A stretch of 64,000 nucleotides of DNA from positions 60,769,369 to 60,833,368 of the forward strand of contig OX442314.1 of assembly GCA_949358305.1 (NCBI GenBank). The letters run 5' to 3'. Position 1 is the first letter of the stretch. Every line of letters starts with the position of its first letter. Source of the DNA: Strigamia acuminata (taxonomy: Eukaryota; Arthropoda; Chilopoda; Geophilomorpha; Linotaeniidae). The notes beneath the pieces are model-generated. The model had not been told where the DNA came from. It saw only the letters and a list, made by a program, of their open reading frames with translations, and ran no database searches. The position numbers and the translations under genes are program-made. Positions 1-60,466 of the stretch are shown piece after piece.

Positions 1-1
1 T

Positions 2-325
2 ACTTCAAACGGCACCGAAATATCCACGATTCCGACAAAAGCTGAAATAAACGAAAATGTAGAATTTCACTCGGAAGCCACGCCGTTTCCATGTCGACTC
101 AAAGATATGGTTAAAAGAAAGAAGAAAATGTTTTTAGCCATGAAAACATTAAAAGATAAACAAAACAACTCACCCGTTGATTTGTACAAGTTTGTTTATT
201 TTCAAAAACCAAAGTTTAATCTTCAAACCGAGAGTGAACTTTGTATTCCACCCTTTGAGCGTACCCAGCTCAAAAATCAACTCTGTGACGCAGAGCTTGA
301 TCAATCACCGTCTAGTAAACGTTAA
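2..325 (+). CDS. C-terminal end of an unassigned reading frame, cut by the window edge
   Basis: The frame is open from base 2 to a TAA at 323-325, about 107 residues, and continues to the left of the window. The first internal ATG is at 107. The visible part is lysine-rich in the middle (a KRKKK run) and shows no recognised domain. It lies upstream of another unassigned frame and of a polypurine tract and LTR, so by position it is probably the 3' end of a retroelement ORF (pol or a third ORF). That is inference from context only. It contains short perfect inverted repeats (for example TTTGAGC paired with GCTCAAA around 255-275) like the rest of this element. Confidence 0.35.
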   Translation, partial: TSNGTEISTIPTKAEINENVEFHSEATPFPCRLKDMVKRKKKMFLAMKTLKDKQNNSPVDLYKFVYFQKPKFNLQTESELCIPPFERTQLKNQLCDAELDQSPSSKR

Positions 326-510
326 GCATACGGTGATAATTAGTGACGTCATATCGTGTCACTAACATAATTCCTCTACTCCGATGATTGGATTATTCCA
401 CTTTTCGAAGTAGCGCGCTTCCGACAACTAGTATTGAGACTCGCGTCCCGTGAAAAAGAAGAAAAACCTTACTTAAAATCTCGATTTCAAGCGATACTGA
501 AACAGTTTCG
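326..510. other. Non-coding gap between two frames of the hairpin-rich element
   Basis: No supported reading frame. It holds a perfect 8-bp inverted repeat, TTAGTGAC (340-347) with GTCACTAA (358-365), and shorter ones further on. It probably separates two ORFs of the same retroelement. Confidence 0.4.
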
Positions 511-2409
511 ATGTCCGATAGACGTAAATCGGGAAAAGGGCGCCTAACGGGAAAGAAATCCCGTAGCCCGACAAAGACTGACCAGAGTCAGGAGCCACAA
601 TCTGATTTATTAAATCAGATTGCCTTAGGAGGACAAGTGATTACCACTTTGAGCCGTTTCCCGTCCCGAAGAGCGCAGACAGCAGCCGCTCAAATAGCAG
701 CTCAAGTTGCCGCCAAACGTCAACTTGCCGCGGAGCACGAAGCTCGCGAATCCCTTCCGTTTTGTTGGCTTTTGTTCTCCGAGATTTGTGATATGCAATT
801 GATTATTGATGTTACACATGTTTGATTTGTAATTATTTATGATTTTATAGTTTATTATCATGTAAACATTGATGTATCAATTGGGTTACCGTAGTTGGAG
901 TTGTTTTTTAACTGCTTAGCAACTGTTGTTTTTACTTGTTCTCTTGTTGTTGATTTTTCTCCATGCTTGCATGAGATGATTAAATCTTGTTCTTTTACTC
1001 ACTTTTGGCCTGGAATTTGTTCATCAATCCATACTTTTAACACGTTTTACGGAGAAGAAGTGGTTGAAGTCCCGTCGTCATCTTCTACCGACCCGATTGA
1101 CATGGACGACGCAGCCGTGGCTTCCTCAGATCGTTCCACGTTCCGAAAGCTGAAAAAAGCAGCCGCTCGAGCCACCGCCAAACAGCGACTGATTGATGAG
1201 CAAGAGGCTCAAGAAGAACTTCTGTTCTTCGAGGAAAAGTTGGGGATGCCGTTGCTGCATCGACCTCTTCCAGGAGAGGGTTGTCTAGTTACCGACCAGG
1301 ACTCGTCCACATCTAGCAACGAGACTGATGAACAGGACGTAATGGAGGTTTATCAGTCAGACCCGTCCTCATCTTCGCTCCACGACATGGAGCGACCAGA
1401 TTCTCCGTCCGCACGTCCCGAATCAAGACAAGGACCAATCGCTGGATCATCGAACATACCAGCAACCGCCGACATCAGCGAGTGGGAACGAAACGCACCA
1501 CCAATGTGTCGCGGAGAGTGGCCCAACCTTTCGTCACGTCCCGCTTCACCGACTCCAGCTCGAAGTCGTTCGCCAACGCCGCCTTTAGATAAGACTTTGG
1601 ACTCAGACTCATCGTTTGAGTCGTTCCAAGATGATGGGGAAAAACTGGAATATGTCCCCGAAATTCCTATTCCTCCCTACGCAGTGCGTAACATGATTGG
1701 TAACACTGCCACCAATTTTAGTGTGCCCATACCAGAGCACACTAATCATCCGAAAGGAGACTTTGAAAGTATGGCACCCGAGCCATACTTTGACGAATTC
1801 TTCAGAGCTCACTGGGAACGCTGCGAGCTGTACCCAATGCAGATACAGCATGAAATGCTGCCTGAGCTCGATTCTTACCAGAGAGCTCAAATAGTAGAAG
1901 CCATTAAAGATTGGCAGTGAGTGGCAGGAAAAATCAGCCACTTGGAGATTAGTGATATTCATCATCACATGTTGAACCAGCTACAACGCGAACTGGTTCC
2001 GGGGTTAACCCATCTGCTATTCCCCGGTGTGTTCACCTCACACAAGCAAGCGTTGGCCGCGGCCTCGTACTTGTGGTCGTCACCAATGGGTTTAGCCCCA
2101 GAGTACCTAGATGCGTGGTACTCGATCCGTTTGGACCCACCAGCGGTGCGTTCCGAGTTGGTGCGCCAGATGATGGCCCGCGGAGAAAGGCCATATGACG
2201 CAGGAGTTCGTCTACAACGAGAGTGGGCCTACACGCCCACTCCACAACAGGAACGCGCAAGAGCTCGACCTGCCGGAGCTCCACTTCCGCCTGCCACGCG
2301 AGCGACTGCCGCTGCATCGCTCGGCGCCTTGAAGGAAGCGCAAAAGTCGCCAAAGACTTTACCCGGCATCGGCCGAGCACAAGTTCGGCGCCCCCGACCC
2401 AAGCATTAA
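511..2409 (+). pseudogene. Unassigned 3' ORF of a hairpin-rich LTR retroelement, split by a solo LTR and an in-frame TGA
   Basis: Starts at ATG 511 and runs in one frame through 511-762 and 1048-1920, then past a TGA (1918-1920) through 1921-2406 to TAA 2407-2409. The LTR inserted at 763-1042 plus its 5-bp duplication is 285 bp, a multiple of three, so the frame is the same on both sides, but the insert itself brings stops. The product would be about 540 residues. It has a basic Ser/Arg/Lys N-terminus, Ala/Gln-rich segments, a Ser/Asp/Glu-rich and Pro-rich centre and a more globular-looking C-terminus. I recognise no family: no protease, reverse transcriptase, integrase or zinc knuckle is visible. 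It sits just before a polypurine tract and LTR, so its place is that of a third (post-pol) ORF. The TGA falls in CAGTGAGT, which also looks like a splice donor, so readthrough, splicing or simple decay are all possible. Confidence 0.5.
763..1042. mobile_element. Solo LTR (family X), 280 bp, inserted in the 511-2409 frame
   Basis: Begins TGTTGGC and ends TTTTAACA (TG...CA). It is flanked by the perfect 5-bp duplication CGTTT at 758-762 and 1043-1047. A related but diverged copy lies at 59657-59991, with the shared blocks GTTCTCCGAGAT, CTCCATGCTTGCATG and a conserved 3' end. No internal coding region or second LTR is present, which fits LTR-LTR recombination leaving a solo LTR. Confidence 0.85.
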
Positions 2410-2523
2410 AGGTCTTGGGGGTGAGGAGAAGAAAAAAGACATTTTATATTTTCTCGTTTCTTTTACTTCTCTTATTCTTTCCTTTTTATTATTCGTTTTT
2501 TGTAAATCTCGTAAGATTTGAAT
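2410..2523 (+). other. 3' untranslated stretch before the polypurine tract
   Basis: T-rich sequence after the TAA at 2407-2409. It contains a 6-bp inverted repeat, AAATCT...AGATTT, near its end. No reading frame is supported. Confidence 0.4.
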
Positions 2524-2538
2524 AAAAAGGGGGGGAAA
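2524..2538 (+). other. Polypurine tract (plus-strand primer)
   Basis: An uninterrupted purine run of A, G and A (5 A, 7 G, 3 A) ends directly at the TG start of the LTR at 2539, the standard position of a retroelement polypurine tract. Confidence 0.75.
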
Positions 2539-2539
2539 T

Positions 2540-2935
2540 GTGGTGACCCTGAGTCACTTTTATTTAATTCAATGTGTGTTTATTAATAAAAAGAGTCACC
2601 ACGAAAGAAGTTGTATTTGCATTTTATTTTGGTAATATTTGTGTTTGGCACACGCCAAACAGTTACATAATTTAGGGGAGAAAATCCTCCCCTAACACGG
2701 CTAACCCCAATATTGTGTGGGGTGAGGCGTTAATTAACCGCTTAGTGAGGCGAAATCCTTTGTCTCACTAAATTACAACGTCCGCGCAGCATCCGCTGCG
2801 CATATTTGAAGCGTGCCTGGCACACGCCACCCTTCCCATAGCCAACGGTTATGGTGCAATAATAACGGCTTTTGGCGCAACAAAATCCTTTGTTGTGCCA
2901 AAATTAGTAATCTGCACATATTTCGTGCGCAGATT
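2540..2935 (+). other. Stem-loop array I in the LTR (U3 side)
   Basis: Consecutive inverted repeats: GTGGTGAC (2540-2547/2595-2602); GTTTGGC loop ACAC (2643-2649/2654-2660); TTAGGGGAG loop AAAATC (2672-2680/2687-2695); TTAGTGAG (2742-2749/2764-2771); GCGCAGC loop ATCC (2784-2790/2795-2801); GTGCC (2813-2817/2819-2823); CCATAGCC loop AAC (2836-2843/2847-2854, one G-T pair); a 15-bp stem with loop ATCC (2870-2884/2889-2903, one G-T pair); AATCTGC (2909-2915/2929-2935). The apical sequence ATCC or AAATCC recurs in several of them. They lie immediately upstream of the TATA-like site, so they could act in DNA (protein binding, cruciform) or in read-through RNA. Confidence 0.75.
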
Positions 2936-2944
2936 TCGAGAGTG

Positions 2945-2951
2945 CATAAAA
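2945..2951 (+). promoter_or_regulatory. Possible TATA box of the LTR promoter
   Basis: CATAAAA within GTGCATAAAACC, at a plausible U3 position just after stem-loop array I. Only a motif match. Confidence 0.3.
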
Positions 2952-3067
2952 CCCCAACAACACCAACAACAAACAACCCAAATGATCATCACTGAAGAAC
3001 TTCAAACAAAAGGATTCCAAGTGCTGACCGGGTTTATACGTTTCTGTGAGTTGAGAGACATTGCTGT

Positions 3068-3091
3068 TTCCACTGAATAAATTCGGTGGAA
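3068..3091 (+). promoter_or_regulatory. Hairpin presenting an AATAAA poly(A) signal
   Basis: TTCCACTGAA (3068-3077) pairs with TTCGGTGGAA (3082-3091), 10 bp including one G-T pair, loop TAAA. The hexamer AATAAA spans 3076-3081 at the apex. A poly(A) signal held in a hairpin is used by some retroviral LTRs to control processing; that role here is inference. Confidence 0.4.
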
Positions 3092-3234
3092 CCAGCCACA
3101 TTTGCGTACAGAACACGAATTTCGGGTAACGCCCGAGAAACTCCGCTCACCCGCCGCCGTCGAGTCGCGTTGACTTGTTCCGTGATTCGCCTCCGTCGAT
3201 CGAGCAACCCGTCGCCGTCAACCATCGTGAGAAG

Positions 3235-3452
3235 ACAGTGAACCACCTGCGAGCTTTACTCCGGAGTTCACTGTTCCATCGCCATCGTACGAGCGAAGGA
3301 AATTTTGTTCCCGCTCGTTGTTGATTATTGTGAGAGCGCCATCGAGTTTACTCTGGTACTCTCATTGTCGTCGTCAACGGCAAAACTTCTCGTAGAGAAC
3401 CATCGCCGATATTCGTAAGCCACCTGCGAGCTTTACTCCGGAGCTTACGAAT
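3235..3452 (+). other. Three stem-loops with a shared 22-nt loop and unrelated stems
   Basis: Stem 1 ACAGTGAAC (3235-3243) / GTTCACTGT (3266-3274); stem 2 TGAGAG (3331-3336) / CTCTCA (3359-3364); stem 3 ATTCGTAAGC (3411-3420) / GCTTACGAAT (3443-3452). Each encloses exactly 22 nt. Loops 1 (3244-3265) and 3 (3421-3442) are identical, starting CACCTGCGAG and ending CTCCGGA. Loop 2 (3337-3358) is clearly related. All three loops can form an inner CC..GAG/CTC..GG pairing. A further hairpin, ACGAGCG (3289-3295) / CGCTCGT (3312-3318), lies between 1 and 2. Loop conservation with fully complementary but different stems is the pattern of a selected RNA structure. Confidence 0.75.
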
Positions 3453-3472
3453 AGAAAGTCATCGTTTTCATC

Positions 3473-3621
3473 GAGAAATAATATTTCTCAGGCGAGTCCG
3501 ACTCGCCATTTTCCGAGCGCAACAAACGCCGTTTGTTGCGCGCCAAACACTCGCGCCCAACGATCAACCGCCGTCGTTGGCGCCTTTCCTTTGTTTCAAG
3601 TGAGTGTAATCGCTCACTTGA
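3473..3621 (+). other. Stem-loop array II in the LTR (R/U5 side)
   Basis: Back-to-back perfect hairpins: GAGAAAT loop AAT (3473-3479/3483-3489); GGCGAGT loop CCG (3491-3497/3501-3507); GCGCAACAAAC loop GCC (3517-3527/3531-3541, 11 bp); GCGCC-AACGA with one bulge (3553-3563/3574-3583); TCAAGTGAG (3596-3604/3613-3621, 9 bp). The 11-bp stem shares GCGCAACAAA with the 15-bp hairpin of array I. Confidence 0.75.
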
Positions 3622-3914
3622 CTCATTTCTCACTCATTTTCTCTTCCCTTCCCTAGTCTTAACCGCTATTTCATTTAAATCTCTCTTTATAATTGTTTAT
3701 TATATTCCGGATAATTATTATTGTAATTTTCGCACAAATAAAACATTTTTGTATTTTATTCAATTCAAACTGTCGTTTTCCTTTCATAAAATTACCCCTA
3801 GACACCACACAGGCAACCGAGTATAAGGCCTATAAACGGCATCTCAATTGCGAACCACTCCAAACAAGGTACGTATTTGTTTTAGAGTGGAAAGCCCGGA
3901 GGAATCGCAACACT

Positions 3915-3932
3915 TGGGGGCCCGGCCGGGAT
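3915..3932 (+). other. Primer-binding site, tRNA-Pro type
   Basis: TGGGGGCCCGGCCGGGAT resembles the 18-nt site complementary to tRNA-Pro 3' ends used by several retroviruses, with a few differences. It starts two bases after the LTR end at 3912. The similarity is from memory of the tRNA-Pro site and was not checked against the host tRNA. Confidence 0.6.
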
Positions 3933-4866
3933 TTATTTGAATAATTCATTATTTAACGTTAAATTTCGACAGTTTAAAAAATTTACCCACCTACTTGTCT
4001 TTCTTCCTCATCTTTCTTCCTCTTTACTAACAAAATGGAATCTTCTCCAAAAGTTAAGATGCCACGAGGAAGACCAGCTAAGAAGAGAATGGCCGAAACA
4101 CCTTCGACCATTATCCAGTCAACTAGCCAGACAAAAAATGATATTTTGACTGGAAATACAAAGCAGGCTCGATACGACTTAAAATCAAGTCCGCCAAAAA
4201 CAACACAGAGTGCGCCGCACTCATGGCTCATGCTGCCGTCCGCGCGAGGCGTAGAGTCGCCTCCTCCCGTGGCATGCAACCCCAAACCAATAACAGTCAC
4301 ATCGTCAACTGTTACGAGTGTTGTAAAACCACTCGACGACCAACCTGAACTTAATATTCCAACTATGAATAGTTGTTGCGAGTCAGTGATGGTCGAAGTA
4401 GATCGAAATGGTTTACAAGTGATGCACTGGAAAAAAAATCAGATTTACTCACTTGTAAAGAATTGTAAATATATAGGTAGATGGATTTTACAAGTTTGTA
4501 AATTAGATTTACAAACAATTGAAAATAAGTCTTTTCCAAACATATTTTCAATCTGGAAAGAGACCATTTCCGTGACTTTTTTTACAATCACTTTACAAAC
4601 ATTTTCAATTGTGTAATTATAAAATTTCATAATATATTTCCAATCTATTTCCAATATATTTCCAATATATTTCCAATAAAAAATCTACTACCCTCCATTT
4701 TGAAAAATTTAAATACATGAACTCAATTTTTTTTTTTAAACTGTTTGATTTTGTTTTCAAACACCATTCAACAATTAGTTTTTATTGATTTGATCACAAT
4801 TTGCATTTTTATTAACAGTTTTATTTAAATTTATTTTAATCTTATAGTTTTCTTTTTTCTTACCTT

Positions 4867-4938
4867 GACCTCTGCTGGAATTGAACCTGGGACCCTTCGT
4901 TCTAAAGCCCACTGCCCTATCCACTAGGCTAGTATGGC
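4867..4938 (-). pseudogene. Degenerate tRNA-like sequence with Pol III box A and box B
   Basis: On the minus strand, TAGCCTAGTGG (4931-4921) fits box A and GGTTCAATTCC (4887-4877) fits box B exactly, at tRNA-like spacing. The D arm pairs. The anticodon, T and acceptor stems are mostly mismatched, so it is not a working tRNA. It may be the head of a tRNA-derived SINE or a tRNA fragment captured by the surrounding DNA transposon. No SINE body was recognised. Confidence 0.55.
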
Positions 4939-5040
4939 TTGTAATAGTTTAATGCATAACTTCCTATAAATAGTAACTTCTTTGTTAAATAATCTATTTG
5001 AGATTCATTGTATTAAAAATACAATCAATCTCACATTGAT

Positions 5041-5093
5041 TACCGTCGATGAAACAATCCGACTCCTGGAGTCGGATTGTTTCATCGACGGTA
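5041..5093. repeat. Perfect 26-bp inverted repeat with a 1-nt centre
   Basis: 5041-5066 is the exact reverse complement of 5068-5093, with a single T between. Part of the arm (CGTTTCATCGAC) is repeated directly right after it (5094-5105). It lies in the middle of the CACTG transposon. Confidence 0.9.
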
Positions 5094-7384
5094 CGTTTCA
5101 TCGACACGAATTTTTCCGTCCCTGCGCCCTGATTGGCCCGATTTCATATTGTCCATGTCGGTTCGAAATTGGACCGTTTTATACATTATTTTATCTTCTG
5201 AGTTGAAATTTGATACAATTTTATTGTTCCTGACTGTATTTTACCTTGTTCTTGTTACATTTCAGATATTTAAATGTTACATTTAAATTTCAGGTATTTT
5301 CTTGCTTTTACATTATTTTTACAATCATTGTGAAATGAAGTTTACAATACATATCCATCCAAAAGAAAATTGATTGGAAACAACATTTCAAACAACAGAT
5401 TTACAACTAATTGAAAATATGACTTTTCATCTCTAGGATTTACTACCCATTTTCAGAAGTTTGGAAATATATAAATATTTCCAACATATTTCCAAAAAAT
5501 TTCCGCATCATAGTAAATTCAACTTTTCCATATAAATTTTCAACTTAGAAATGTTTGGAAATATGCTTTTTTTTCCAGTGATGTGGCCAAAGGAGATTAG
5601 TCCCACATCATCATCTCCTTCGCCTACACTTGGTGAAGAACCACCTGATTTATGCGAAAATTCAGATGAAGGAATTTCAAACTCTTTCGAGTATGTCATT
5701 CCGACAAACTCATTGTGCGAGCAAAACGTGCTCCACAAAAATAAATTGAATCAACAAATGACTGTAGATAAAGCACCTGATTCAACGGAATCAGCCTGCA
5801 GTCTTGATAAAAAAGAGACTACTAAAAATAGTCCACCTGTTGAGTTTAAGCAACATAATGCTGAACTCAATCAACAATACGCCGAGGCGCGTATTCAAAA
5901 TCCAGAAGTTAGTCAGGAGACTAAAAAAGAATCGAATGTGCTTCAATCTGAACAAAAATTAGAATTAGCACATAGAAAACTGCAAATTGCAACTGAAAAT
6001 TTGAAAGTTGCAAGAGAAAGATTGAAAATTGCCAATTCGAATGCACAAATGGCTGCAACCAATTTACAAGTGGTGCAGCAGGCAAATACAAGATTTCTCG
6101 CTCGCCTAACAGCGATTGATGAGGCTGATCGACTCACGAGACGACAGTCTACCAGGGGTCGCCCACCAAAGGCTAATTTAGTTAACAAGGCCCCTGAAAC
6201 CAAAAGTTCCTGCGCCGCTTCTGCAAACACCCAAGCGATAGCTAACCAGGAACCAACGAAAAGCAAAGATGATATTTTTGTACAATCTACACAAATATCC
6301 TCAAAAGGTGCTCAAAACTCACCTTTGACAGTCAATCTAAATTGGTCTGATTTTTCAATTGAAAATCAGATGGACTTATCAGATAGTGACGAATCACTAA
6401 ACGAATGTAATATTCGTAAAAAATCAGCTACCACGCTACGAGATAATGCTACACGCAGAATCTTGAAGAATTTAGATCGTTTGAGTGAAATCGGTGATAA
6501 CTTAACCGATATCCTGAATTCACCTATTCCAGAAACCGCCGACCATCCAGAGTCGTCTGACGACTTGCCCGGTAGACAATTAAATCAAGAAAGTCAATCC
6601 GACATTATTGATTTAATAAAAAATAACGGCAACCTTCAGGTAACCGTTAACTGTTCAAATCAAGAGGAAGTGACCGGTAGAGATTGTCACTTAATAAAGG
6701 ACTATGACTCACCCGAGTTACTTAACTACCCGATTCAATCAAATGAAAATTTGAATGAATTTTCCATTGCAAAAGACTCCTCACTGTTAAGACAGAGAAG
6801 TCAGCCTAGAGTTAGGATACGTAAAAAAGGTGTAGAAGAACCGAAATTCGAACTTTTTTATACTGATCAAGAAATCAGTATTCTTAAACAAGCTGATCAA
6901 CATGAAGATTTTATTCTTCGCAAAATTGACAGCTATGCATCTGTGAACTGGACACATAATCGAATCAACGAAAAATTCATTCGTTGGGATCAAATATCGC
7001 CACCCCTCTTTAATGGAGAATGGCAGATTGGATCCAATTTTCTGGATATGATCCTGAAAATAGCCCAGAAATATGGCTGTGGACCTCAAGACACGCTTAC
7101 AAAATTAATACCCCTTGATGGGAGAAGCCCGAGATTGGTTCAGGAGAAAGAGATTTACAAATTGGAATGAATTTGTAAGAGAATTTATGTACACATTCGG
7201 AGAACTGTACGAAGACGCCCTCTCACGTTGGAACAAATTAAAACAAGAGCAAGGAGAAGGGCTGCGCTCTTACCTACGTCGTACAGAAGAAATACTGTTG
7301 CAAATAGCTCAGCAACCTGACGATGCAACAGTTGACATGAAATTCCGGAATGGATTAACATATTACTTCTATCAAGCTGCATCA

Positions 7385-7468
7385 GTGTAAAAATCAGCAC
7401 TTTTTCACTTTTTCCATAGTTTATTTAATGGCCGTCAGCACTCTTTCACTTCTTGCATAGTTTTTCAA
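7385..7468 (+). repeat. 84-bp block S, copy 1
   Basis: Starts GTGTAAAAATCAGCAC. It is itself two diverged copies of a 43-bp unit (CAGCACTTTTTCAC... and CAGCACTCTTTCAC...). Nine copies occur in the satellite domain. This one is fused to the end of the gag frame at the shared TATCAAGCTGCATCAG (7370-7385). Confidence 0.85.
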
Positions 7469-23140: not shown

Positions 23141-23224
23141 TTGAAAAACTATGCAAGAAGTGAAAGAGTGCTGACGGCCATTAAATAAACTATGGAAAAA
23201 GTGAAAAAGTGCTGATTTTTACAC
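23141..23224 (-). repeat. 84-bp block S, copy 5
   Basis: Inverted partner of copy 1, likewise fused to gag. Confidence 0.85.
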
Positions 23225-24451
23225 TGATGCAGCTTGATAGAAGTAATATGTTAATCCATTCCGGAATTTCATGTCAACTGTTGCATCGTCAGGTTGCTGA
23301 GCTATTTGCAACAGTATTTCTTCTGTACGACGTAGGTAAGAGCGCAGCCCTTCTCCTTGCTCTTGTTTTAATTTGTTCCAACGTGAGAGGGCGTCTTCGT
23401 ACAGTTCTCCGAATGTGTACATAAATTCTCTTACAAATTCATTCCAATTTGTAAATCTCTTTCTCCTGAACCAATCTCGGGCTTCTCCCATCAAGGGGTA
23501 TTAATTTTGTAAGCGTGTCTTGAGGTCCACAGCCATATTTCTGGGCTATTTTCAGGATCATATCCAGAAAATTGGATCCAATCTGCCATTCTCCATTAAA
23601 GAGGGGTGGCGATATTTGATCCCAACGAATGAATTTTTCGTTGATTCGATTATGTGTCCAGTTCACAGATGCATAGCTGTCAATTTTGCGAAGAATAAAA
23701 TCTTCATGTTGATCAGCTTGTTTAAGAATACTGATTTCTTGATCAGTATAAAAAAGTTCGAATTTCGGTTCTTCTACACCTTTTTTACGTATCCTAACTC
23801 TAGGCTGACTTCTCTGTCTTAACAGTGAGGAGTCTTTTGCAATGGAAAATTCATTCAAATTTTCATTTGATTGAATCGGGTAGTTAAGTAACTCGGGTGA
23901 GTCATAGTCCTTTATTAAGTGACAATCTCTACCGGTCACTTCCTCTTGATTTGAACAGTTAACGGTTACCTGAAGGTTGCCGTTATTTTTTATTAAATCA
24001 ATAATGTCGGATTGACTTTCTTGATTTAATTGTCTACCGGGCAAGTCGTCAGACGACTCTGGATGGTCGGCGGTTTCTGGAATAGGTGAATTCAGGATAT
24101 CGGTTAAGTTATCACCGATTTCACTCAAACGATCTAAATTCTTCAAGATTCTGCGTGTAGCATTATCTCGTAGCGTGGTAGCTGATTTTTTACGAATATT
24201 ACATTCGTTTAGTGATTCGTCACTATCTGATAAGTCCATCTGATTTTCAATTGAAAAATCAGACCAATTTAGATTGACTGTCAAAGGTGAGTTTTGAGCA
24301 CCTTTTGAGGATATTTGTGTAGATTGTACAAAAATATCATCTTTGCTTTTCGTTGGTTCCTGGTTAGCTATCGCTTGGGTGTTTGCAGAAGCGGCGCAGG
24401 AACTTTTGGTTTCAGGGGCCTTGTTAACTAAATTAGCCTTTGGTGGGCGAC
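23219..24451 (-). pseudogene. gag: Inverted partial copy of gag
   Basis: The reverse complement of 6159-7390: the same capsid-like frame (23219-23494) and the same preceding frame (23439 to about 24451), including the same one-base frame offset between them. No differences were seen in the translated parts I compared. The frameshift therefore predates the duplication, which is recent or an assembly effect. The copy is cut at 24451, where 41-bp satellite resumes. Confidence 0.8.
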
Positions 24452-59656: not shown

Positions 59657-59991
59657 GTTGGGTTTTTCTTGTTCTCCGAGATCCGTAATTTGTGGTTGCT
59701 GATAGATGTGATACATTATTTATTCGGGTTTATTATGTAGTGATTTATTATATAGTTATTATTATATAATTGTATTTTATCCTTGTGTAAACCTTGAGTG
59801 TGTATGTATCGGATGGATTACCGTAGCTGCATATTATGTTATTGTGTATGGCTTTTGTTTAAATTCCCTAGCAACTACTGTTGTATCTTCTCTCTTCTTG
59901 TTTTCTCCATGCTTGCATGGTATTAAAATATGTTATGTTCTTTTTACTCACTTTTGGCCTGGAATTTGTTCATCAATCCATATTTTCTACA
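59657..59991. mobile_element. Solo LTR (family X), 335 bp, in element 4
   Basis: TGTTGGGT...TTCTACA with TSD GGTGT (59652-59656 and 59992-59996). Related to the solo LTR at 763-1042. Confidence 0.85.
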
Positions 59992-60466
59992 GGTGTTCTC
60001 TCTCCAACTCGTCGACGTGGGCCAAGACCGCCCCAACGCCAAACGGGGACGCGTCTGCTGCGATCACCAACGGACGGTGAATGGGAGCGGAGGTTAAAGC
60101 CCGTTTAATCCCGTCAAATGCCCGCTGCCTGCGCTGGTTCCAAACCCAACTTGCGTCCGCGCACAACAGTTCGTATAGCGGAGTTGCCTTGTCGGCCAAG
60201 TGTTCAATGAACACGGCGTAAAACGCCACCATTCCCAAAAAGGTTCTAAGACCCTTCACATCCACGGGCGGTGGGATTGCCAACACTGCCTCCACTTTTG
60301 ACGAGATCGGCCTCACTCCCATCTGGCTAATTGAAAAACCCAAAAAATTCAAGCCACTTTCACAAAATAAACACTTCTCCCTAGCCAGGTGTAAACCCCT
60401 ATCAGCCAATCTACGAAAAATCTGCTCTAAAACCCACAAATGCTCTGGCAGGTCCCACGTTGCTAC
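59992..60466 (-). pseudogene. RT/RNase H part of element 4 (piece 3)
   Basis: A minus-strand frame at 59987-60439 matches the end of RT and start of RNase H of element 1 with amino-acid changes and a missing segment (the TYYDL part). It is interrupted at 60466 by the next insertion. Confidence 0.88.

What the first reader, a model, noticed from the sequence alone, without database searches (positions are those of the whole stretch)
1..7390. A retroelement whose LTR and coding regions are packed with short perfect hairpins
Seen directly: perfect inverted repeats follow one another across both non-coding and coding sequence. Examples with loops of 10 nt or less: 12 bp at 598-622 (centre 1 nt), 9 bp at 1718-1745, 10 bp at 1766-1791, 9 bp at 2672-2695, 11 bp at 3517-3541, 9 bp at 3596-3621, 9 bp at 6346-6370, 9 bp at 7155-7178. 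Many 7-8 bp ones also occur (1375-1395, 2101-2123, 2221-2242, 5876-5895, 5987-6013, 6304-6326, 6551-6565, 6860-6881, 6966-6986). For about 6 kb of equal-base random sequence, the rough expectation for perfect stems of 9 bp or more with loops up to 10 nt is 6000 x 10 x 4^-9, about 0.2; I count eight. Two very different reading frames (511-2409 and gag) both show it, so it is not a protein constraint. Possible meanings: genome-wide ordered RNA structure that protects, packages or silences the element, or a mutational process (template switching) that keeps making small inverted duplications. I know of no described LTR element with this property.
Basis: partly seen in the sequence, partly recalled or inferred. 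Interest (0 to 1): 0.88.

Follow-up and report, generated by a model that had tools for sequence, protein, structure and literature searches.

The report
Retrotransposon rich in conserved RNA-like hairpins
A family of jumping genes carries an excess of RNA-style hairpins in the pieces examined, genes included; many hairpins of its terminal repeats persist across diverged copies and the pooled folding excess is stronger on the coding strand, which suggests that the element's RNA is kept folded.

Summary
All eight stems are present; 8 perfect stems of 9 bp or more lie in the two stretches against 0.34 expected. The LTR at 2539-~3920 is the 3' LTR of an element without pol; a second, incomplete copy follows and ends at the satellite at 7390. 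In 35 full-length LTR copies many hairpins recur in place, some with compensatory changes. A gypsy-type relative (L062) has diverged versions of some. Genes of both fold better than codon-shuffled versions (sense z -4.8 to -10.8; controls -1.0 to -2.5). Pooled folding excess is stronger on the sense strand (108 windows, p=1.3e-5), unlike control gypsies. Five integrase segments nearest to L062's (about four lineages) also fold; 12 of 13 others do not.

Best reading: ordered RNA structure, known from RNA viruses, in a gypsy lineage; template switching makes some stems. Against it: no G-U bias in single changes, weak (gag) or no (ORF3) coding covariation, antisense signal as strong in several pieces, and hairpins above chance elsewhere in the genome. 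LTR palindromes are known from Sireviruses. Function is inferred.

The parts
1..325 (+). 3' end of ORF2 of the first element copy (frame open from the upstream locus L052)
   Evidence: the frame 642-1466 of L052 continues into window 2-325
511..2409 (+). ORF3 of the first copy, with an in-frame stop at 1918-1920 and an inserted repeat inside; aligned parts 36-40% identical to the 762-aa ORF of L062
   Evidence: 93 and 172 aligned columns; copies; no Pfam match in the pieces scanned
760..1050 (.). short repeat inserted in ORF3 (approximate borders); 906-1048 is 78% like 59858-59997
   Evidence: the frame without it in L058
2539..3920 (+). 3' LTR of the first copy (5' LTR at C1:60764526, 97% identical over the 1262 bases searched); 3' border near 3920 inferred, not fixed
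2642..2661 (+). LTR hairpin, stem of 7 bp or more in 33 of 35 copies; the outermost pair differs in compensated form in L037 and L039, and further outer pairs in the L062 family
2672..2695 (+). LTR hairpin, 9 bp here, 7-10 bp in 32 of 35 copies
2698..2729 (+). LTR hairpin, 7 bp or more in 29 of 35 copies
2742..2935 (+). run of further local hairpins (2742-2771, 2784-2801, 2808-2835, 2837-2853, 2870-2903, 2909-2935); 2784-2801 carries the template-switch scar in L029
3227..3282 (+). LTR hairpin sharing a stretch of its loop with 3410-3453
3410..3453 (+). LTR hairpin with two main arm types among the copies, each paired throughout in most copies that bear it, around a nearly constant loop
   Evidence: 4 pairs with compensatory change, 27 cells
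3473..3541 (+). three consecutive hairpins (3473-3489, 3491-3507, 3517-3541)
   Evidence: 31, 19 and 33 of 35 copies with 7 bp or more
3596..3621 (+). LTR hairpin, perfect at 7 bp or more in only 9 of 35 copies
3921..7390 (+). leader and gag-like ORF of a second, incomplete copy; hairpins at 6346-6370, 6551-6565, 6860-6881, 7155-7178 recur, with changes, in other gag copies
4425..5580 (.). separate inserted element with inverted ends CACTGGAAAA and ATG on both sides (4422-4424, 5581-5583); 26-bp hairpin at 5041-5093; not part of the retroelement
   Evidence: read from the sequence

Best explanation
The hairpins are the visible part of an ordered secondary structure of the RNA of a Ty3/gypsy-type lineage, present in an abundant family with integrase (L062) and in the family without pol in the window. 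Shown: excess local folding in the LTR and in the five ORF pieces codon-shuffled from the two families, beyond dinucleotide and codon composition; recurrence of many LTR hairpins in diverged copies; a pooled signal stronger on the sense strand. Inferred: that selection acts on the transcript. The mechanism I think most likely is that a compactly folded genomic RNA is harder for small-RNA machinery and nucleases to attack and easier to pack into particles, while LTR hairpins serve as specific cis-structures shared by helper and dependent element. In the genes the amount of folding is kept while individual helices turn over. Template switching supplies some of the perfect stems.
For: Fold z in 120-nt windows, 70 dinucleotide shuffles: 108 family windows mean -2.18 sense and -1.61 antisense, paired difference -0.57, p=1.3e-5; 79 windows of three gypsy stretches of the window -0.40 and -0.37, p=0.87. 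Codon-shuffled total energy (30 shuffles), sense z: gag -6.9, ORF3 -5.4, ORF2 -4.8, L062 integrase frame -10.8, L062 ORF3 -10.2; controls gypsy1 -1.0, gypsy2 -2.1, gypsy3 -1.3, an ORF of L066 -2.5. LTR: 98.8% of cells paired, 16 pairs with compensatory change against 3-4 in slid versions (the structure was predicted on the same alignment); double changes restore pairing in 1158 of 1652 cells against 949 of 2225 in shifted pairs (cells are not independent). A structure-aware model scores the L062 LTR 37.6 bits against 30.8 without structure. Of further copies, the 6 gag, 5 ORF3, 3 LTR and 1 L062-type LTR tested have mean sense z from -1.33 to -2.76. The five integrase segments nearest to L062's, about four lineages, have sense z of -3.1 to -4.0.
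Against: One-sided changes in stems give G-U no more often than A-C (94 against 75 states, p=0.17; Fisher tests not significant). Sense bias is not uniform: window ORF3 -1.45 and -1.45, L062 LTR -2.21 and -2.42; under codon shuffling window ORF3 is lower on the antisense strand (-6.2 against -5.4); three of five other ORF3 copies are lower on the antisense strand, as are four of the five nearest relatives. Coding covariation is weak for gag (206 of 390 against 234 of 559) and absent for ORF3 (170 of 338 against 287 of 598). Controls are not all flat: gypsy2 has -3.8 in its integrase segment and -3.4 antisense in its first half, random stretch L059 has -1.20 (25 windows), and the unrelated insert 4425-5583 has -1.79 and -2.10 (11 windows). 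With dinucleotide shuffles the nearest relatives are only at -0.9 to -1.3. No RNA, small-RNA or probing data were available.
Confidence: 0.56

Rival explanations
1. A mutational process alone: template switching, in reverse transcription or replication, keeps making and repairing small inverted repeats, with no selection for structure.
For: L029 has an 18-bp inverted duplication with inverted loop at 2784-2801; a scan of 35 LTR copies found loop inversions at two sites (2790, 2815), and L042 looks inverted at the first site (read from the alignment). Arms change together in blocks at 3410-3453. Template switching can create and maintain hairpins (PMC8794818, abstract read). Short perfect stems exceed chance in random stretches. 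Antisense folding is also in excess, -1.61 over the family.
Against: It is symmetric between strands, but the pooled excess is stronger on the sense strand. No loop inversion was found in 9 gag copies, 7 ORF3 copies or 13 L062-type LTRs. Of 13 more distant integrase segments of the same genome, also copied by reverse transcription, 12 lack the folding excess. Several LTR hairpins stay in register in 29-33 of 35 copies.
Confidence: 0.18
2. The LTR hairpins are palindromic DNA sites for proteins acting on the promoter, as proposed for Sirevirus LTRs, and the coding signal is a separate matter.
For: The hairpins of 2642-2935 lie upstream of a TATA-like GCATAAAACC at about 2944 (read from the sequence); Sirevirus palindromic boxes lie upstream of the TATA box (PMC2829016, passages). 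No strand preference in single changes.
Against: Hairpins continue through the rest of the LTR, mostly differ in sequence and have loops up to about 22 nt; coding excess is about as strong as in the LTR and survives codon shuffling.
Confidence: 0.15
3. A property of the host genome: short inverted repeats are everywhere, and the element only shares it.
For: 143 stems against 12.0 in fourteen 10-kb stretches; L059 has mean z -1.20; an ORF of L063 has an excess of 8-bp stems.
Against: Fold z of 77 windows from seven of the fourteen stretches is -0.33 sense and -0.38 antisense; of 13 more distant integrase segments 12 lie between -1.4 and +0.9 under codon shuffling.
Confidence: 0.06

Closest known systems
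[quoted passage not shown]
   Same: Folding excess over randomised controls, through coding sequence
   Different: Described for RNA viruses, with persistence and reduced innate sensing (PMC3950689, abstract read); here an LTR retroelement lineage, function untested, sense bias not uniform
Palindromic repeats in LTRs of plant Sireviruses (Ty1/copia)
   Same: Many palindromic motifs in the LTR, upstream of a TATA-like site
   Different: There a repeated motif with a CGG-CCG core in most of them (PMC2829016, passages); here hairpins mostly of different sequence, gypsy-type integrase in the relative, and folding excess in the genes too
Hairpins made and maintained by template switching
   Same: Inverted loop and perfected arms in LTR copy L029
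   Different: Seen at two sites; does not account for the pooled sense bias or the difference between gypsy lineages
RNA genomes of yeast Ty1 and Ty3
   Same: LTR retroelement RNA with structured stretches (PMC11381356, abstract and section 29 read: up to 30% of the RNA in stable regions)
   Different: That paper reports probing and a mosaic of stable and dynamic regions; the words z-score and shuffle do not occur in its main text, so the degree is not comparable

Membership tests
LTR retrotransposon | Two long direct repeats starting TG, around an internal region | tested here: met
   5' and 3' LTR 97% identical, starts 7381 bases apart; all 35 full-length copies begin TGTGGTGA
Ty3/gypsy, window element | Gypsy-type pol | tested here: not met
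   About 2.2 kb between gag and ORF3 holds ORFs without pol domains in Pfam; filed as an element without pol, probably dependent on a relative (inference)
Ty3/gypsy, L062 relative | Integrase domains next to an ORF and LTR related to the window element | tested here: met
   PF17921 4.3e-18, PF00665 4.1e-9; ORF3 36-40% identity in the aligned parts; LTR alignable in part. Reverse transcriptase and gag of this element were not fetched; its place among gypsies rests on the integrase tree
GORS | Folding energy lower than in randomised controls over most of the genome | tested here: met
   tested in pieces, not over the whole element
GORS | Signal stronger on the genomic RNA strand | tested here: inconclusive
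   pooled p=1.3e-5, but no bias in single substitutions, none in window ORF3, and reversed in 4 of 5 nearest relatives
GORS | Altered recognition of the RNA by host defence | not testable with these tools
   no expression or small-RNA data
Sirevirus palindromic LTR | Copia-type element with repeated CGG-CCG palindrome | tested here: not met
   gypsy-type integrase in the relative; hairpin sequences mostly differ from each other
Known RNA family | Rfam match at gathering score in 1-7390 | tested here: not met
   0 matches

The most novel reading that the evidence does not exclude
A clade of Ty3/gypsy retrotransposons keeps its genomic RNA in ordered structure, as persistent RNA viruses do, as a shield against RNA-guided silencing or as a packaging aid, and the element without pol retains both the helper's LTR hairpins and the folding of its genes because it must pass through the same particles.
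Probability: 0.33. Interest if true: 0.82.

Novelty: new variant of a known kind. Interest (0 to 1): 0.62.

Why it matters
Ordered structure along coding RNA is known from RNA viruses and tied to evasion of host sensing. Finding it in one lineage of retrotransposons and not in most other gypsies sampled from the same genome gives a natural comparison in one host for asking what such structure does, including whether it blunts small-RNA silencing. The pair of an abundant family with integrase and a related family without pol allows tests of signals used in trans.

Tried and rejected
Single-substitution test for the RNA strand (G-U against A-C): no preference; the pooled counts (81 GT, 10 AC) looked like a strong bias but come from few sites (7 against 3), so I do not use them. 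RNAalifold pair counts lean towards their own structure; the shifted-pair test is preferred. Public protein search with the L062 ORF3: none of the 7998 candidates scored reached E 0.001. Pfam: nothing at E 0.1 in the window pieces of gag and ORF3, only a hit at E 0.95 at a laxer limit, and a sub-threshold zinc knuckle (E 0.022) in the upstream piece. Rfam: none. A satellite artefact was considered: the 252 stems of 7391-37247 lie largely in the 41-bp arrays, whose unit contains a palindrome (read from the units, not counted), but the retroelement stretches lie outside them. Loop lengths (6 nt seemed common in some control stretches) were not pursued. Changes made on checking: the fifteen integrase segments include near-identical pairs, so I now speak of segments, not families; and more antisense and control results are told. 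For that I lowered confidence from 0.58 to 0.56 and the novel case from 0.35 to 0.33. Papers: searches listed no report, by these terms, of ordered RNA structure over an LTR retrotransposon lineage; the library lacks most subscription journals, only the listed top rows were looked at, and Bousios 2016 was not held and is known only through passages in PMC10760457.
Full report
WHAT IS THERE. The stretch 1-7390 is not one element. Positions 1-2538 are the 3' part of an LTR element whose 5' LTR begins at C1:60764526; its 3' LTR begins at window 2539 and is 97% identical to the 5' one. The LTR runs to about 3920; I did not fix the 3' border. From there a second copy begins; its gag-like ORF is interrupted at 4425-5580 by a separate insert with inverted ends and ATG on both sides (read), and the copy stops at 7390 where the 41-bp satellite region begins. 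A 1233-bp piece of it (6158-7390) recurs, 100% identical and inverted, at 23219-24451, next to satellite. Between gag and ORF3 of the first copy lie about 2.2 kb with ORFs that carry no pol domain in Pfam, so the element has no pol of its own; three other copies (one on C13, two on C5) have a spacing of about 2.3 kb, while the matches on C10 and at C1:6.47 Mb are spaced otherwise.

THE OBSERVATION. All eight stems are present. Against dinucleotide shuffles the excess is large: 6 against 0.23 in 1-4424 and 2 against 0.11 in 5584-7390 for 9 bp or more. Two limits: the genome as a whole also exceeds a Markov null (143 against 12.0 in 140 kb, with 80 of the 143 from two of the fourteen stretches), and the window's gypsies are not free of stems (4 in 13.0 kb against 0.39). 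The density in the finding (8 in 6.2 kb) is above both the gypsies and the median stretch (6 per 10 kb).

COPIES OF THE LTR. The genome search scored 40 of 183 LTR candidates and listed 42 matches. I used 40 LTR loci, of which 35 are full length; each of the 35 has 1 to 4 stems of 9 bp or more and 4 to 8 of 8 bp or more. Several stems of 7 bp or more recur in place: 2651 in 33 of 35, 2683 in 32, 2713 in 29, 3481 in 31, 3528 in 33; but 3499 in 19, 3609 in 9. On an alignment of 28 of the 35 (left out: L007, L013, L014, L015, L018, L035 as close to others, L033 as rearranged), RNAalifold gives a chain of local hairpins over most of the LTR, with 98.8% of cells paired and 16 pairs with compensatory changes against 3 or 4 when partners are slid. 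Because that structure was predicted on the same alignment, I also took pairs from the folding of single copies: when both partners differ between two copies, Watson-Crick pairing is restored in 1158 of 1652 cells in 16 LTR copies, against 949 of 2225 for shifted pairs (related copies, so its p-values are not meaningful). The hairpin at 3410-3453 has two main arm types that differ by three paired changes around a nearly constant loop.

THE RELATIVE. One of the fourteen control stretches, L062 (C1:35000001-35010000), turned out to carry an integrase frame (PF17921 4.3e-18, PF00665 4.1e-9), an ORF of 762 aa that is 36-40% identical to ORF3 over the aligned parts and an LTR. That family is abundant: 59 of 1480 protein candidates were scored, the listed ones at 96% identity or more, and 40 of 503 LTR candidates were scored; several LTR pairs lie about 11.4 kb apart. 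Its LTR keeps diverged versions of the first hairpins: a covariance model of window 2636-2738 scores it 37.6 bits with structure and 30.8 without, with compensated pairs in the first stem. The gain is modest, and for one of the 13 LTRs, L073, it is only 26.5 against 26.0. L062 was counted as a control before this was known.

FOLDING. In non-overlapping 120-nt windows, 108 windows of the two families have mean z -2.18 on the sense and -1.61 on the antisense strand (paired difference -0.57, p=1.3e-5); 79 windows of three gypsy stretches of the window have -0.40 and -0.37 (p=0.87). Within the family, window 1057-2538 (-1.45, -1.45) and the L062 LTR (-2.21, -2.42) show no sense bias. Seven random stretches give -0.33 and -0.38 in 77 windows, though L059 alone gave -1.20 and L069 +0.25 in an earlier run, and the separate insert 4425-5583 gave -1.79 and -2.10. 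Codon-shuffled genes (30 shuffles) give sense and antisense z of -6.9 and -4.0 (gag), -5.4 and -6.2 (ORF3), -4.8 and -2.9 (ORF2), -10.8 and -6.5 (L062 integrase frame), -10.2 and -6.3 (L062 ORF3), against -1.0 and -1.8, -2.1 and -3.4, -1.3 and -0.7 for three gypsy pieces and -2.5 and -1.9 for an unrelated ORF of L066. Of the further copies I tested six of the gag loci, five of the ORF3 loci, three LTRs and one L062-type LTR: mean sense z between -1.33 and -2.76, sense below antisense in 6 of 6 gag and 4 of 4 LTRs but in only 2 of 5 ORF3. So the amount of folding is kept down to about 70% identity. Individual helices are kept less: double changes restore pairing in 206 of 390 cells against 234 of 559 for gag, and 170 of 338 against 287 of 598 for ORF3. 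Single cases of paired change in gag exist, at 7155-7178 and 6860-6881.

OTHER GYPSIES. Fifteen integrase segments were chosen from the 150 scored of 4147 candidates by differing frame length, and compared with L062 and the three gypsies of the window. The tree shows that several are near-identical (L087 and L089, L085 and L086, L094 and L095, L090 and L099, L091 with L097 and L098), so they stand for about nine lineages. Under codon shuffling L062 is lowest (-5.5 for its 1.4 kb); the five others with 33-36% identity to it, L087, L088, L089, L092, L093, lie at -3.1 to -4.0; gypsy2 is at -3.8; the remaining twelve of nineteen lie between -1.4 and +0.9. With dinucleotide shuffles L062 is at -2.2 and the five at -0.9 to -1.3. 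Four of the five have stronger antisense than sense values. The tree puts L062 with L087, L089, L092, L093 (support 0.988) and L088 with the window gypsies (0.871).

HOW IT MIGHT WORK. Codon-independent folding in the ORFs tested, its presence in two families whose ORF3 proteins share 40% identity or less in the aligned parts, and the pooled sense bias favour selection on RNA. The role is inference: shielding of the RNA and packing are the candidates I rank first; the LTR hairpins may serve helper and dependent element alike. Template switching is a likely source of some stems: L029 shows an 18-bp inverted duplication and an inverted loop, L042 looks inverted at the same site (read), and one more site shows a loop inversion. 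A DNA role for the hairpins upstream of the TATA-like site cannot be excluded, since single changes show no strand preference (94 G-U against 75 A-C states, p=0.17).

AGAINST WHAT IS KNOWN. GORS is established for RNA viruses (PMC3950689, abstract). Sirevirus LTRs carry palindromic repeats upstream of the TATA box (PMC2829016, passages); [quoted passage not shown] Template switching can create and maintain hairpins (PMC8794818, abstract and start of the introduction). Ty3 RNA has been probed (PMC11381356, abstract and section 29). Anything on GORS beyond that abstract is recalled. My searches found no report of it for an LTR retrotransposon lineage, within the limits told above.

VERDICT. Observation confirmed; interpretation partly supported; a new variant of a known kind, with RNA-level selection likely but not proved.

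Noticed in passing
window 7391-37247: Satellite of 41-bp units, each with a palindrome around TTGATCAA, accounts for much of the 252 perfect stems there; arrays of 20-bp units with ORFs of about 251-264 aa recur between them in both orientations.
   Followed up: partly
window 23219-24451: Inverted copy, 100% identical over 1233 bp, of the gag piece 6158-7390, next to satellite, as if retroelement and satellite were duplicated together.
   Followed up: partly
L002, C1:60764526: The 5' LTR of the first copy is directly preceded by 41-bp satellite sequence.
   Followed up: no
window 4425-5580: Insert of about 1.16 kb with inverted ends, ATG on both sides and a 26-bp perfect hairpin at 5041-5093; it too folds better than shuffles.
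   Followed up: no
L066 1047-2478: Seven perfect stems of 9-11 bp, most with 6-nt loops, within 1.4 kb.
   Followed up: no
L064 (C2:100001-110000): 55 perfect stems of 9 bp or more in a 10-kb stretch of 56% GC; those printed are CCGTTAACGG-like palindromic repeats.
   Followed up: no
L063 3060-3083 and 4920-4943: The same 9-bp hairpin with 6-nt loop occurs twice around an ORF of 496 aa of unknown kind that has itself an excess of 8-bp stems.
   Followed up: no
L062 2677-4962 and window 511-2409: ORF of unknown family lying between the integrase frame and the 3' LTR in L062; no Pfam match, no homologue among the public candidates scored.
   Followed up: partly
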